A stretch of DNA of 64,000 bases, from assembly GCA_040881665.1 (NCBI GenBank), contig JBBECT010000005.1, positions 264,138 through 328,137 of the forward strand. The letters run 5' to 3'. Below, one piece after another: positions 22,920-53,017 of this stretch. A program made the position numbers and the translations under genes. This DNA comes from Actinomycetota bacterium (lineage in GTDB: Bacteria > Actinomycetota > UBA4738 > HRBIN12). Each line of letters begins with the position of its first letter. The first letter of the stretch is position 1. Below the pieces are notes generated by a model that was not told the DNA's origin, did not search any database, and was given only the letters and a program-made list of their open reading frames with translations.

Positions 22920-23933
22920 TCAAACGATCGTCAGCTGTCGCGGCTCGTCGGCTCCGGACCGTTCGGCTCGATCGCCACGGCCGAACCGCCCCCGCCGATC
23001 CCCTCCTGCGGACCGGAACCCGCCGAGCGCCCGGGAGATCCGCCCGACGGTGCGACCGAGGGCCTTCCGATCGGCCAAGGGAGCATACGGGCGCTGATAC
23101 ATCGCCTCGTAGCGCGGAACGAGGTCGGGATATGTCTCGGCGAGCCATGGAAGGAACTCCTCGCGGACCCCCGGTCGCAGATGGAGCAGGATCGGCGAGA
23201 CGTGCGTCGCACCCGCGTCGATCGCCGCGCGAACCACCTCGCGGAGCATCCGCGGGTCGTCGCTGATCCCCGGAAGCACGGGCGCGATCAGCACCCCGCA
23301 CCCGATCCCCGCCGCGTTCAGCTTCGCGACGGCCTCGATGCGCGCCCGGGGATGCGGCGTACCGGGCTCGGTGCGTCGCCACACCTCGTCGTCGAGCGTA
23401 CCGATCGAGAACGCGGTACTCACCTCGCTCACCCGCGCCGCGTCCACGAGCAGATCGAGATCGCGGAGCACGAGTGTGCCCTTGGTCAGGATCGAGAACG
23501 GGTTCCGGTAGTCGCGCAGGGTCTGGATGATGCGTGGCATCAGACGGTAGCGACCCTCGGCGCGTTGGTAAGGGTCCGTGTTGGTGCCCATCGCGATGCA
23601 CTCGCCCTTCCAGCGCTTGGCGGAGAGCTGGGCGCGCAGCACCTCGGGAGCGTTGACCTTCACCACGACCTTCGTCTCGAAGTCGCGCCCCGCGTTCATA
23701 TCGAGGAACGCATGGGTCGGTCGTGCGAAGCAGTACACGCACGCGTGCGTGCACCCTCGGTAGGGATTGATCGTCCACGAGAACGGCAGCGCCCCGCCGG
23801 GCACCCGGTTGATGATCGTCTTGCACTCCGCCTCGATGAACGTCACCCCGCGGAACTCGGGCGTATCGGCCTCGATGCGCCGCAGTTCGAAGAGTTGCTG
23901 GTCGGGAGGCATCGGGTTCAGACGATAGAACAT
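22920..23933 (-). CDS. Radical SAM protein (SPL-like, Rv2578c family)
   Basis: A 337-residue radical SAM enzyme. The cluster motif is CTHACVYCFAR near residue 60, preceded by NPYRGC, and the repair-like elements MGTNTDPYQRAE and LTKGTLVLRDLDLL are typical of the family that includes spore photoproduct lyase relatives. The reaction is unknown. I chose the ATG at 23933 (MFYRLNPMPP); a LexA box covers this start codon, so the gene is probably induced by DNA damage. It is divergent from the metallo-hydrolase gene with 43 bases between starts. Confidence 0.87.
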   Translation of the reverse strand: MFYRLNPMPPDQQLFELRRIEADTPEFRGVTFIEAECKTIINRVPGGALPFSWTINPYRGCTHACVYCFARPTHAFLDMNAGRDFETKVVVKVNAPEVLRAQLSAKRWKGECIAMGTNTDPYQRAEGRYRLMPRIIQTLRDYRNPFSILTKGTLVLRDLDLLVDAARVSEVSTAFSIGTLDDEVWRRTEPGTPHPRARIEAVAKLNAAGIGCGVLIAPVLPGISDDPRMLREVVRAAIDAGATHVSPILLHLRPGVREEFLPWLAETYPDLVPRYEAMYQRPYAPLADRKALGRTVGRISRALGGFRSAGGDRRGRFGRGDRAERSGADEPRQLTIV

Positions 23934-23940
23934 ACGTTCG
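23927..23940. promoter_or_regulatory. LexA (SOS) box on the radical SAM start codon
   Basis: AGAAC-ATAC-GTTCG is one base from the actinobacterial SOS consensus CGAAC-N4-GTTCG. It overlaps the start codon of the radical SAM gene and lies 37 bases before the divergent metallo-hydrolase start, so it could control either. From memory the mycobacterial homologue Rv2578c was listed among LexA-regulated genes; I could not verify this here. Confidence 0.65.
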
Positions 23941-23976
23941 ATTGCCGCAAGACCCCCGCCGGGCGAGGCTGGGCCG

Positions 23977-24642
23977 GTGAGCGAGCACCCCGTCACTCCC
24001 CGACCCTCCGAGACGCCCGAGTTCGGGTTCGTCCGGGCGGGCGGACCGATACACGCCTACGCGGAGACCGTCGGGATCGAGGTGATGAAGTTCGCGGTCG
24101 GTCGACTCGACAACGACGTCTACGTGATCCGCTCCCGGGGCCAGGCCGCGATCGTGGACGGCGCGGACGAAGCGGACCGGATCCTGGGCGAGGTGGACGG
24201 GTACGAGGTCCGGGCCATCGTCCAGACGCACAACCACAGCGATCACACCCGCGCGCTCCGCGAGCTCACCCTTCACCTCGGGGCCCCGGTCTATGCCCAC
24301 CCCGCCGATGCGATGCCCGTCCCCACGCTCGACATCCTCGATGGGCAGGCGCTGCAGATCGGCGCCGCGTCGCTGCGCGCGATGCACACTCCCGGCCACA
24401 CTCCCGGGAGCACGTGCTACCTGCTCGAGCCCGGCGGGTTCCTGTTCTCGGGCGACACCCTGTTCCCCGGAGGTCCCGGCAACACCGACGGCGATCCGAC
24501 GCGGTTCGCCCAGACGATGAGCGGTCTCGATCGGCTGTTCGAGCTCCCTGACGACACGCGCGTCTGCCCGGGTCACGGCCTCGACACGACGATCGGCCGC
24601 GAACGCCCCTACGTCGAGACCTGGCGAGAACGCGGCTGGTAG
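23977..24642 (+). CDS. MBL-fold metallo-hydrolase (glyoxalase II-like)
   Basis: A 221-residue metallo-beta-lactamase fold hydrolase. The metal motif is HNHSDHT, followed by HTPGHTPGST and SGDTLFPGGPGNTDGD, and a C-terminal CPGHG histidine. These fit the glyoxalase II / thioesterase branch that hydrolyses thioesters such as S-lactoyl-thiols. The start is GTG 23977. It is divergent from the radical SAM gene. The substrate is not shown by the sequence. Confidence 0.87.
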   Translation: MSEHPVTPRPSETPEFGFVRAGGPIHAYAETVGIEVMKFAVGRLDNDVYVIRSRGQAAIVDGADEADRILGEVDGYEVRAIVQTHNHSDHTRALRELTLHLGAPVYAHPADAMPVPTLDILDGQALQIGAASLRAMHTPGHTPGSTCYLLEPGGFLFSGDTLFPGGPGNTDGDPTRFAQTMSGLDRLFELPDDTRVCPGHGLDTTIGRERPYVETWRERGW

Positions 24643-39268: not shown

Positions 39269-39565
39269 TCAGGCGCCCGCAGGGATGGCGAGCGCCTGAC
39301 CGGGGACGATCGCGTCGGCGTCGATCGAGTTGGCCTCGACGATCGCGTCGACGAGTGGCCGGGGATCGACCCCGGGATCCGCCTCGGACCGTGCGATCGA
39401 CCACAGGGTTTCCCCCGACACCACGACGTGCCGGTGGGAAGAGGTGTGCGCCGGCGGCCCGCTGAAGGCTCCCGCGGCCGGACCCCATAGGGTTAGGACC
39501 AGGGCCGGAACCCCCACGAGAACCGCGAGGCGGCGGCGGTGAACACGAACAGACGTTCGAGACAT
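39269..39565 (-). CDS. LysM protein next to lexA (YneA/ChiZ-like cell-division candidate)
   Basis: A 98-residue protein with one membrane or signal helix (RLAVLVGVPALVLTLWGP) and one LysM domain (HVVVSGETLWSIARSE to IVPGQALAIP), which binds peptidoglycan. Its position, divergent from lexA and followed by nrdR, matches Rv2719c in mycobacteria and the YneA layout in Bacillus, where LysM proteins halt division after DNA damage. A perfect LexA box lies inside its first codons and two more lie upstream. The ATG at 39565 is the best start. The role as SOS division brake is inferred from context. Confidence 0.8.
   Translation of the reverse strand: MSRTSVRVHRRRLAVLVGVPALVLTLWGPAAGAFSGPPAHTSSHRHVVVSGETLWSIARSEADPGVDPRPLVDAIVEANSIDADAIVPGQALAIPAGA
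39546..39559. promoter_or_regulatory. LexA (SOS) box 1, within the LysM gene start
   Basis: CGAAC-AGAC-GTTCG is a perfect match to the SOS consensus. It falls inside the first codons of the LysM gene, just after its ATG, where bound LexA would block its transcription. Confidence 0.85.
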
Positions 39566-39580
39566 GCCCCGCAGTGTGCC

Positions 39581-39594
39581 CGAACACCCGTTCG
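39581..39594. promoter_or_regulatory. LexA (SOS) box 2, lexA-LysM intergenic
   Basis: CGAAC-ACCC-GTTCG is a perfect consensus match in the gap between the two divergent genes. Confidence 0.9.
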
Positions 39595-39610
39595 AGGTCA
39601 AGCACCGAAC

Positions 39611-39624
39611 CGAACGTATGTTTG
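39611..39624. promoter_or_regulatory. LexA (SOS) box 3, over the lexA -35 region
   Basis: CGAAC-GTAT-GTTTG has one mismatch. It overlaps a likely lexA -35 (TTTGAA at 39621-39626), which is 18 bases from a TAGCGT -10 at 39645-39650, so it is the autorepression site. Confidence 0.8.
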
Positions 39625-39699: not shown

Positions 39700-40323
39700 A
39701 TGGCCACCACGACCGCCGAACACGAGCTGACCGCTCGCCAGCGTCGGATCCTCGAGTTCATCGAGTCCACCGTCCGTGACCGCGGCTACCCCCCCACCGT
39801 GCGCGAGATCGGCGAGGCCGTGGGGTTGACCTCCTCCTCGAGCGTGCACAGCCAGCTCGAGAACCTCCAGAAGAAGGGCCTGCTCCACAAAGACCCCACG
39901 AAGCCCCGCGCGCTGATCCTCGACGCGCCACGACCCGAGGGCGCCGTCGTCCCTCTGGTCGGCCGGATCGCAGCGGGTGCCCCCGTGCTCGCGGAGGAGC
40001 ACGTCGACGAGTACCTGACGGTCCCGCGCGACTGGGTCGACGACAGCGAACACTTCGCGCTGAAGGTCACCGGCGACTCGATGATCGACGCGGGCATCCA
40101 CGACGGCGACACGGTGATCGTGCGCGGCCAGGCCTCGGCCGACGAGGGCGACATCGTCGCGGTGCTGTTGCCCGGTCCCGCCGAAGACGAGGCGACGGTC
40201 AAGCGCTTCCACCGCGATGGCGACCGGGTGATGCTCGTCCCCGAGAACCCTCGCCTCGAGCCGTTCGAGATGACCGACGGCAGCATCCTCGGGACCGTGG
40301 TCGCGGTTCTCCGCAAGCTCTGA
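39700..40323 (+). CDS. lexA: LexA SOS repressor
   Basis: A 207-residue LexA. The N-terminal winged helix (residues 10-70, TARQRRILEFIE, SSSSVHSQLENL) binds SOS boxes, and the C-terminal S24 peptidase self-cleaves when activated by RecA. The cleavage Ala-Gly is in RIAAGAPVLAEE; the catalytic serine is in TGDSMIDAGI and the lysine in ATVKRF. GAGAGGAG precedes the ATG. Three SOS boxes lie upstream. The SIS-domain gene begins three bases after the stop, so it probably shares the lexA transcript. Confidence 0.97.
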   Translation: MATTTAEHELTARQRRILEFIESTVRDRGYPPTVREIGEAVGLTSSSSVHSQLENLQKKGLLHKDPTKPRALILDAPRPEGAVVPLVGRIAAGAPVLAEEHVDEYLTVPRDWVDDSEHFALKVTGDSMIDAGIHDGDTVIVRGQASADEGDIVAVLLPGPAEDEATVKRFHRDGDRVMLVPENPRLEPFEMTDGSILGTVVAVLRKL

Positions 40324-51581: not shown

Positions 51582-52706
51582 CTAGTTGGCGGACGCGTCG
51601 GCCGGCTGCTTCCCTTTGGACTTCGGTGCAGGTGCATCCGCCGTCGGCGTGGCGGACTCGGCCGCCGGAGGCGCCTCGCTGTCGGGGATCTCGATCGGCT
51701 TGTCGTCCTCGGCGCCGAAGACATCGAGTCCGACCGCCTCGCGAACGCGGCGCTCGATCTCCTGTCGGACATCGGTGTTCTCGACCAGGAACTGCCGCGC
51801 GTTCTCACGACCCTGTCCCAGCTGTTCACCCTCGTAGGTGAACCACGCGCCGGACTTCTTGACGATCTCGAGATCGACCCCGACGTCGAGCAGGCTGCCC
51901 TCGGCCGACACGCCCTTGCCGTACATGATGTCGAACTCGCACTGACGGAAGGGCGGGGCCACCTTGTTCTTCACGACCTTGACCCGCGTGCGTGATCCGA
52001 CCACCTCGGTGCCATCCTTCAGGTTCTCGATCTTGCGAACATCGAGTCGCACCGACGCGTAGAACTTCAGCGCGCGACCGCCGGGGGTGGTTTCGGGGCT
52101 CCCGTACATGACGCCGATCTTCTCCCGGAGCTGGTTGATGAAGATCGCGGTGGTGTCGAAACGCGAGAGGGAGCCGGAGAGCTTGCGCATCGCCTGCGAC
52201 ATCAGGCGCGCCTGCAGACCGACGTGGGTGTCGCCCATCTCGCCCTCGATCTCGGCACGCGGGACGAGCGCCGCGACGGAGTCGATCACGACGAGATCGA
52301 GCGCTCCCGAACGCACGAGCATGTCGGAGATCTCGAGTGCCTGTTCCCCCGAGTCCGGCTGCGAGACGAGCAGCTCGTCGATGTTGACGCCCAGCTCCTT
52401 GGCATAGGTCGGGTCGAGCGCGTGCTCGGCATCGATGAATGCGGCGATGCCGCCCTTCTTCTGGGCCTCGGCGATGATGTGCAGACAGACGGTCGTCTTG
52501 CCCGAGCCCTCGGGACCGAAGACCTCGACGACACGCCCCTTCGGGATGCCACCGACGCCGAGCGCGATGTCGAGCGCCATCGACCCCGTCGGGATGATCG
52601 AGATGCCGTCGCTCATCGAGTGTTCACCGAGCTTCATCACGGCACCCTTGCCGAACTGCTTCTCGATCTGGGAGAGCGTGACGTCGAGCATCTTGTCCCG
52701 ATCCAT
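51582..52706 (-). CDS. recA: Recombinase RecA
   Basis: RecA, 374 residues, the strand-exchange protein and LexA co-protease. Walker A is GPEGSGKTT, with the ALDVVVIDS-like Walker B region ([15 protein letters not shown]) and L2 loop after [17 protein letters not shown]. The C-terminus is an Ala/Pro/Lys-rich tail. I start at ATG 52706 because AAGGAGGACCGC precedes it; a start five codons earlier would use that ribosome site as coding. No intein. A perfect LexA box lies 165 bases upstream. Confidence 0.97.
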
Positions 52707-53017
52707 GCGGTCCTCCTTCATCCCCCTCGTCGACGCACGCGGAGCGCCTCCGAGACCGTTGTGACCCTCTGCGCCTCGCGAGCGAGGAACCGATCGCGGC
52801 GAACGCTACCGAGGGGGTCTGACATGGATTACACCCCTGTCATTCGCGAACTGGCAAGCCCGAAGCTAGTCGAACACGTGTTCGAAGGCAAGCATCTCCC
52901 AACTCCGCAGGTCGAGCGCACAGGCCCTAGGGCCGAGGCCGGTTGTCCTCATCCCCCTCCATCCCGCACGATGGGGCGTCCCCCGAGGCGGCTCGGGGGG
53001 CCGAGAGGAGCGCGGCA
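52707..53017. other. recA / propeller-gene divergent intergenic region
   Basis: 311 bases between two divergent starts. It holds the LexA box at 52871-52884 and nothing else I can name with confidence; a GTGTAATCC stretch near 52825-52835 on the minus strand may be part of the recA -10 region. Confidence 0.5.
52871..52884. promoter_or_regulatory. LexA (SOS) box upstream of recA
   Basis: CGAAC-ACGT-GTTCG is a perfect palindromic match. It sits 165 bases before recA and 134 bases before the divergent secreted-protein gene. Confidence 0.92.

What the first reader, a model, noticed from the sequence alone, without database searches (positions are those of the whole stretch)
23927..23940. LexA box covering the start codon of a radical SAM gene of the SPL-like family
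AGAAC-ATAC-GTTCG is placed exactly on the ATG, an ideal repressor position. The enzyme family is related to DNA photoproduct lyase and its reaction is unknown. SOS control suggests a DNA-repair or damage-response chemistry worth defining.
Basis: partly seen in the sequence, partly recalled or inferred. Interest (0 to 1): 0.55.

Follow-up and report, generated by a model that had tools for sequence, protein, structure and literature searches.

The report
SOS-controlled radical SAM repair-like enzyme gene
A DNA-damage switch (a LexA binding site) really does sit on the promoter of a radical-chemistry enzyme that resembles a UV-damage repair enzyme, and this pairing recurs across much of its phylum, but the idea that such genes are SOS-controlled is already in print and what the enzyme does is still unknown.

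Summary
The box is real. GAACATACGTTC lies at 23928-23939, and lexA itself, with three like boxes, is in the window. Relatives confirm it: 85 of 108 loci carry an exact GAACN4GTTC upstream, against 0.34 expected. In an even phylum sample 29 of 42 examined genomes do. Two corrections. (1) The ATG inside the box is probably not the start. Relatives put the start at the next ATG (23912-23910), so the box covers the promoter: -35 TTGCGG, 17 nt, -10 TATCGT sharing the box's last base, near-leaderless transcript. (2) The enzyme has the spore photoproduct lyase (SPL) fold (VIA Z 20.4). Yet it lacks two of the three residues of SPL's radical relay: Y99 is Phe in 74 of 78, and no Cys stands where C141 is expected. 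SOS control of SplB-like genes is published for other groups, including a Streptomyces LexA target. So: a well-supported new case of a known kind, attached to an orphan chemistry. The most novel reading, a distinct SOS radical repair reaction, is open and testable.

The parts
23927..23940 (-). LexA box, CGAACGTATGTTCT on the gene's strand
   Evidence: conserved in relatives
23945..23950 (-). putative -35 element TTGCGG
   Evidence: TTG at 16-19 nt spacing in 33 of 66 loci, 2.8 in shuffles
23922..23927 (-). putative -10 element TATCGT, 17 nt from the -35, sharing one base with the box
   Evidence: TANNNT at this offset range in 67 of 105 loci, 4.3 in shuffles
23910..23912 (-). likely start codon ATG (MPPDQQLFEL...)
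   Evidence: in-frame stops or no earlier start in relatives
23931..23933 (-).
22920..23912 (-). radical SAM protein, 330 aa, closest to the Rv2578c family, SPL-like fold
23730..23753 (-). codons of CTHACVYC (Cys54, Cys58, Cys61), the iron-sulphur motif; next residue is Phe62
   Evidence: Cys invariant in 78 of 78; Phe62 in 74 of 78
39700..40323 (+). lexA (LexA_DNA_bind + Peptidase_S24)
39546..39624 (.). three LexA boxes upstream of lexA: 39546-39559, 39581-39594, 39611-39624
52871..52884 (.). LexA box upstream of recA (recA 51582-52721, minus)

Best explanation
Shown by comparison: a LexA operator (23940-23927, minus) sits inside the core promoter of a radical SAM gene, between a -35 and a -10 element and touching the -10, and this arrangement is kept in most relatives. 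Inferred: LexA bound there blocks RNA polymerase; after DNA damage RecA-driven LexA self-cleavage frees the promoter and the enzyme is made from a short-leader or leaderless mRNA starting at ATG 23912. The enzyme has an SPL-like barrel with one SAM-binding [4Fe-4S] cluster and would make a 5'-deoxyadenosyl radical. Inferred, weaker: it acts on damaged nucleic acid, but not through SPL's Cys141-Tyr99 hydrogen relay, because those residues appear to be absent; so either the hydrogen donor differs or the reaction does.
For: Exact GAACN4GTTC in the upstream window of 85 of 108 loci, 0.34 expected from the same loci elsewhere. Even phylum sample: 43 of 119 genomes have a match at E<=1e-20; upstream DNA examined in 42 of these; exact core in 29, one mismatch in 2 (G033, G453), none in 11. 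The box is 15-36 nt before the first in-frame start after it in 95 of 105 loci with a box. -10 like TANNNT beside the box in 67 of 105 vs 4.3 shuffled; commonest gap from -10 to start 6 nt (26 loci), the leaderless spacing. lexA and recA in the same window carry such boxes. Other boxes of the genome precede a UvrD-type helicase, a DnaE-type polymerase and DUF222 proteins. PA0069-type cousins on plasmids carry other groups' motifs: GTTCN7GTTC in 5 of 6 alphaproteobacteria, CTGTATATATAAACAG in Aeromonas. Published: S. venezuelae radical SAM gene vnz_31145, LexA ChIP-seq peak and 20-fold mitomycin induction (PMC9380542, passages). Fold: SPL entries Z 20.1-20.4 over 265-267 residues, next family 16.1.
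Against: No binding or induction data for this organism. Box missing in close relatives G455 and G490 although their lexA promoters have boxes. Box missing in all 8 examined f14 genomes, whose enzyme (tested on one, L047) is PA0069-type. vnz_31145 was not shown here to be the same family. Gene neighbourhood gives no repair partner. Loci are the best 80 of 580 and include near-duplicates, so counts are not independent.
Confidence: 0.78

Rival explanations
1. The box lies on the true start codon (ATG 23933): LexA blocks from a site covering the start, as first read.
For: The ATG is in frame and open; in Solirubrobacterales-like relatives a GTG start (VRW...) begins at the box's last base (L066, L069, L083, L106, L121 and others); in the same genome a UvrD-helicase and a DnaE-type ORF also have an ATG inside their box.
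Against: Close relatives have no usable start there and some have in-frame stops; spacing is not in threes; the -10 lies downstream of that ATG.
Confidence: 0.1
2. The box serves the divergent MBL-fold hydrolase (23977-24642, plus), not the radical SAM gene.
For: The box is 37 nt before that gene's GTG.
Against: A tblastn of the MBL protein over the loci hits only the window's own locus and, weakly (32%), L127, while the box stays with the radical SAM gene.
Confidence: 0.05
3. The enzyme is a true SPL-type lyase that repairs spore photoproduct with another hydrogen donor.
For: SPL is by far the nearest solved fold; Tyr60 matches SPL Tyr97 (72 of 78); PMC5368176 reports a clostridial SPL with its cysteine at another place (passages); Cys205 is present in 50 of 78.
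Against: TIGR04070 score 23.6 against cut-off 400; Tyr99 is Phe in 74 of 78; no Cys at 106-113 in any of 78; spore photoproduct is mainly a lesion of dry spores (recalled).
Confidence: 0.15
4. The enzyme is SOS-induced but acts on something other than DNA (tRNA, a nucleotide pool molecule or a protein).
For: Radical SAM folds with such substrates score Z 13-16 too; relay residues of SPL are missing.
Against: SPL stands clear of them in Z and in length aligned; SOS membership recurs in groups with different LexA motifs (PMC3323433, passages).
Confidence: 0.25
5. The palindrome is chance.
For: The window is rich in GAACN4GTTC, some probably intragenic.
Against: Conservation far over chance.
Confidence: 0.01

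Closest known systems
Rv2578c family radical SAM protein (NCBIfam NF038135)
   Same: Best family match, 415 bits, E 1e-124, over residues 22-300; relatives over the cut-off carry the same box (L032, L036)
   Different: 15 bits under the family's cut-off of 430; short N-terminus without the MRW start of other members
PA0069 family radical SAM protein (NF033668)
   Same: 262 bits; cousins in Proteobacteria carry their own LexA motifs
   Different: Far under cut-off 360; a separate branch; f14 actinobacterial examples have no box
Spore photoproduct lyase (TIGR04070, PDB 4fhc)
   Same: Fold (Z 20.4), CX3CX2C cluster, Tyr before the last Cys, EPGT...R motif
   Different: 23.6 bits vs cut-off 400; relay Tyr99 is Phe; catalytic Cys141 not found
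S. venezuelae LexA target vnz_31145
   Same: Radical SAM gene said to resemble thymine-crosslink repair enzymes, LexA ChIP-seq peak, 20-fold mitomycin induction (PMC9380542, passages)
   Different: Its listed box (TCGACCGTTCGCTC) is weaker; membership in this family not established
SOS-regulated splB (COG1533) of alpha- and beta-Proteobacteria and Bacteroidetes
   Same: Published SOS membership of SplB-like radical SAM genes (PMC3323433, PMC8565304, passages)
   Different: Other phyla, other LexA motifs; photolyase role there is presumed by homology

Membership tests
LexA (SOS) regulon, actinobacterial type | CGAACRNNYGTTCG-like palindrome (motif recalled) at the promoter | tested here: met
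   1 mismatch of 14; beside -10
LexA (SOS) regulon, actinobacterial type | Same box at lexA/recA of the same genome | tested here: met
LexA (SOS) regulon, actinobacterial type | Site conserved in orthologues | tested here: met
   85 of 108 loci; 29 of 42 in the even sample; exceptions told
LexA (SOS) regulon, actinobacterial type | LexA binding and damage induction | not testable with these tools
   no wet-lab data for this organism
Radical SAM superfamily (PF04055) | Score over gathering cut-off and CX3CX2C | tested here: met
   60.8 vs 29.5; Cys54, 58, 61 in 78 of 78
Rv2578c family (NF038135) | Score over equivalog cut-off 430 | tested here: not met
   415.4, 415.2 on genome DNA
Spore photoproduct lyase (TIGR04070 / PF20903) | Score over cut-off | tested here: not met
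   23.6 vs 400; 20.8 vs 27
Spore photoproduct lyase (TIGR04070 / PF20903) | SPL fold | tested here: met
   Z 20.4, rmsd 3.7-3.8, 266-267 residues; Foldseek E 8.6e-9
Spore photoproduct lyase (TIGR04070 / PF20903) | Relay Tyr99 (B. subtilis) | tested here: not met
   Phe62 in 74 of 78, Tyr in 4
Spore photoproduct lyase (TIGR04070 / PF20903) | Catalytic Cys141 (B. subtilis) | tested here: inconclusive
   No Cys at 106-113 in any of 78 and no invariant Cys beyond the cluster; the place was set by eye from spacing and a recalled SPL motif, no residue-level structure alignment was available
Spore photoproduct lyase (TIGR04070 / PF20903) | Converts SP TpT to TpT | not testable with these tools
   needs assay

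The most novel reading that the evidence does not exclude
This is one branch of an old, widespread SOS enzyme family (Rv2578c/PA0069) that uses the SPL fold for a different radical reaction on damaged nucleic acid, with no Cys141-Tyr99 relay; SOS control would then have been kept or regained under at least three different LexA motifs.
Probability: 0.45. Interest if true: 0.72.

Novelty: new member of a known kind. Interest (0 to 1): 0.42.

Why it matters
If right, a common bacterial damage-response enzyme that is usually annotated as a photolyase works by other chemistry than the one enzyme it is named after. The conserved promoter gives a clean reporter, and the missing relay residues give a clear assay question.

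Tried and rejected
Start at ATG 23933: rejected on relatives. Divergent MBL gene as target: rejected. Gene neighbours as a clue to substrate: nothing recurred in more than about a tenth of 110 loci; RNase HI downstream in 7. Tie to S. venezuelae vnz_31145 through its printed box: pattern in 392 genomes gave 25 loci, none with the gene; left open. A true SPL in this genome: none found. PDB by single sequence: no hit. Papers on the reaction of PA0069 or Rv2578c: searches listed none on it; these hold open-access papers only. Apparent box in G455 is coding DNA for EQLFE inside the gene and was not counted. Canonical box at lexA of f14 genomes: not found, their LexA are divergent and some show CAAACN4GTTTG, so their lack of a box says little. 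VIA rows absent are not taken as exclusions. Recalled, from no call: that M. tuberculosis Rv2578c and P. aeruginosa PA0069 are in published LexA regulons; the consensus LexA motifs of the three groups; the SPL motif used to place Cys141.

Full report
What was checked. The 14-base site is in the sequence at the stated place, on the minus-strand gene's 5' end. The genome uses this kind of box: lexA itself is in the window at 39700-40323 with three boxes before it, and recA at 51582-52721 has one. Genome-wide, CGAACN4GTTYG gives 23 forward matches against 3 for the reversed control. Other sites precede a UvrD-type helicase (L003), a DnaE-type polymerase (L007; 'dnaE2' is my inference), DUF222 proteins (L130, L133) and an SLFN_AlbA_2 protein (L004); L008 and L136 ORFs had no family, and several sites look intragenic.

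Conservation. tblastn of the protein found it in 110 loci. L040 and L124 were set aside because their N-terminal part was not in the hit. Of the other 108, 85 have an exact GAACN4GTTC within -150 to +34 of the place of query residue 1; the rest of the same loci hold 9 in 520 kb, which predicts 0.34. With one mismatch allowed in a window of 200 nt upstream, 105 of 108 have a candidate; L046, L047 and L104 do not. These loci are biased to close relatives (one search keeps 80 of 580) and hold near-duplicates. So I drew an even sample of the phylum: 119 genomes, 43 with a match at E<=1e-20. Upstream DNA was examined in 42 (16, 26; G471, with weak matches only, was not). The exact core is there in 29, one mismatch in 2, absent in 11: G455, G490, G058 and eight f14 genomes. 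The printed count (16 of 26) includes G455, which I dropped because the match is inside the coding sequence. G455 and G490 have canonical boxes at lexA, so there the control of this gene has been lost. The f14 enzyme tested (L047) is over the PA0069 cut-off, and f14 lexA promoters lack the canonical box.

Start codon and promoter. In nine close relatives no start codon can be used there, and four have an in-frame stop before the next start. The conserved start corresponds to ATG 23912-23910. Seen from it, the box is at -28 to -15. Upstream of it the window has TTGCGG, 17 nt, TATCGT, then 9 nt, then ATG. Across 105 loci a TANNNT sits at a fixed offset from the box in 67 (4.3 in shuffles), most often 6 nt before the start codon, which is the spacing of a leaderless transcript. 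A TTG 16-19 nt before the -10 is seen in 33 of 66 (2.8 in shuffles). So the operator fills the spacer and touches the -10: a classic block to RNA polymerase. In some relatives (VRW starts) the box does reach the start codon.

Which gene the box serves. The MBL-fold gene on the other side was found in only one other locus, weakly, and no neighbour is kept with the radical SAM gene across the loci. The box goes with the radical SAM gene.

The protein. Best family is Rv2578c, 415 bits, just under its cut-off of 430; PA0069 262 bits; SPL 23.6 bits. An alignment of 78 relatives keeps only the three cluster cysteines among cysteines. Its profile finds SPL as the best solved protein (E 4e-4 to 1e-3). 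AlphaFold2 on 69 relatives gives mean pLDDT 90.7, pTM 0.87. SPL entries lead by Foldseek (E 8.6e-9) and VIA-align (Z 20.1-20.4, rmsd 3.3-3.8, 265-267 aligned; next SuiB 16.1). In SPL the relay is C141, Y99, Y97 (PMC5368176 and PMC3742179, passages). By the profile alignment Y97 is kept (Tyr60, 72 of 78) and Y99 is Phe (74 of 78; Tyr in L047, L142, L143, L146). No Cys occurs at 106-113 in any of 78; the place of C141 was set by eye and by a recalled motif, so this point is inconclusive at residue level. Cys205 is present in 50 of 78 and could be a donor in part of the family.

Beyond the phylum. Of 66 plasmid records with a match I fetched 10. GTTCN7GTTC stands upstream in 5 of 6 alphaproteobacteria, CTGTATATATAAACAG in Aeromonas, CGAACATGTGTTCT in Streptomyces, nothing by these patterns in Pseudorhodobacter, Tsukamurella and Legionella. 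No chance rate was computed for these, but each of the five alphaproteobacterial loci held the motif only upstream of the gene. This fits papers that put splB under SOS control in alpha- and beta-Proteobacteria (PMC3323433, passages) and Bacteroidetes (PMC8565304, passages), though I did not test that their splB is this family. PMC3323433 says the trait was not seen in gammaproteobacteria, so the Aeromonas site would be an addition. In Streptomyces venezuelae a radical SAM gene is a LexA ChIP-seq target induced 20-fold by mitomycin (PMC9380542, passages). PMC12924846 (passages) notes that a Streptomyces Rv2578c-family protein is only 17.6% identical to SplB and calls a repair role speculative.

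Verdict.

Noticed in passing
39269-39565, minus: Small protein with a possible LysM-like region, divergent from lexA, with a LexA box just inside its 5' end; looks like the SOS cell-division inhibitor position of Rv2719c/DivS/YneA (recalled, not tested).
   Followed up: no
L031, L039, L041, L043, L046 and others: Matches split near residue 67-75 with open frames of about 650-730 aa: intein insertions beside the iron-sulphur motif, as NCBIfam NF038136 describes.
   Followed up: partly
L130, L133: DUF222 (one with HNH) proteins with LexA boxes upstream, several in one genome.
   Followed up: partly
L200-L208, L212: f14 genomes hold one to three divergent LexA-like genes; some have CAAACN4GTTTG upstream, possibly another LexA motif.
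   Followed up: partly
L066, L069, L083, L106, L121, L179, L197: In these relatives the box ends at the GTG start codon itself, so the operator has shifted relative to the -10 between lineages.
   Followed up: partly
window 6710, 7649, 9730, 16296, 46848, 55819: Further GAACN4GTTC matches, probably mostly intragenic; the window is enriched for the core beyond the plausible operators.
   Followed up: no
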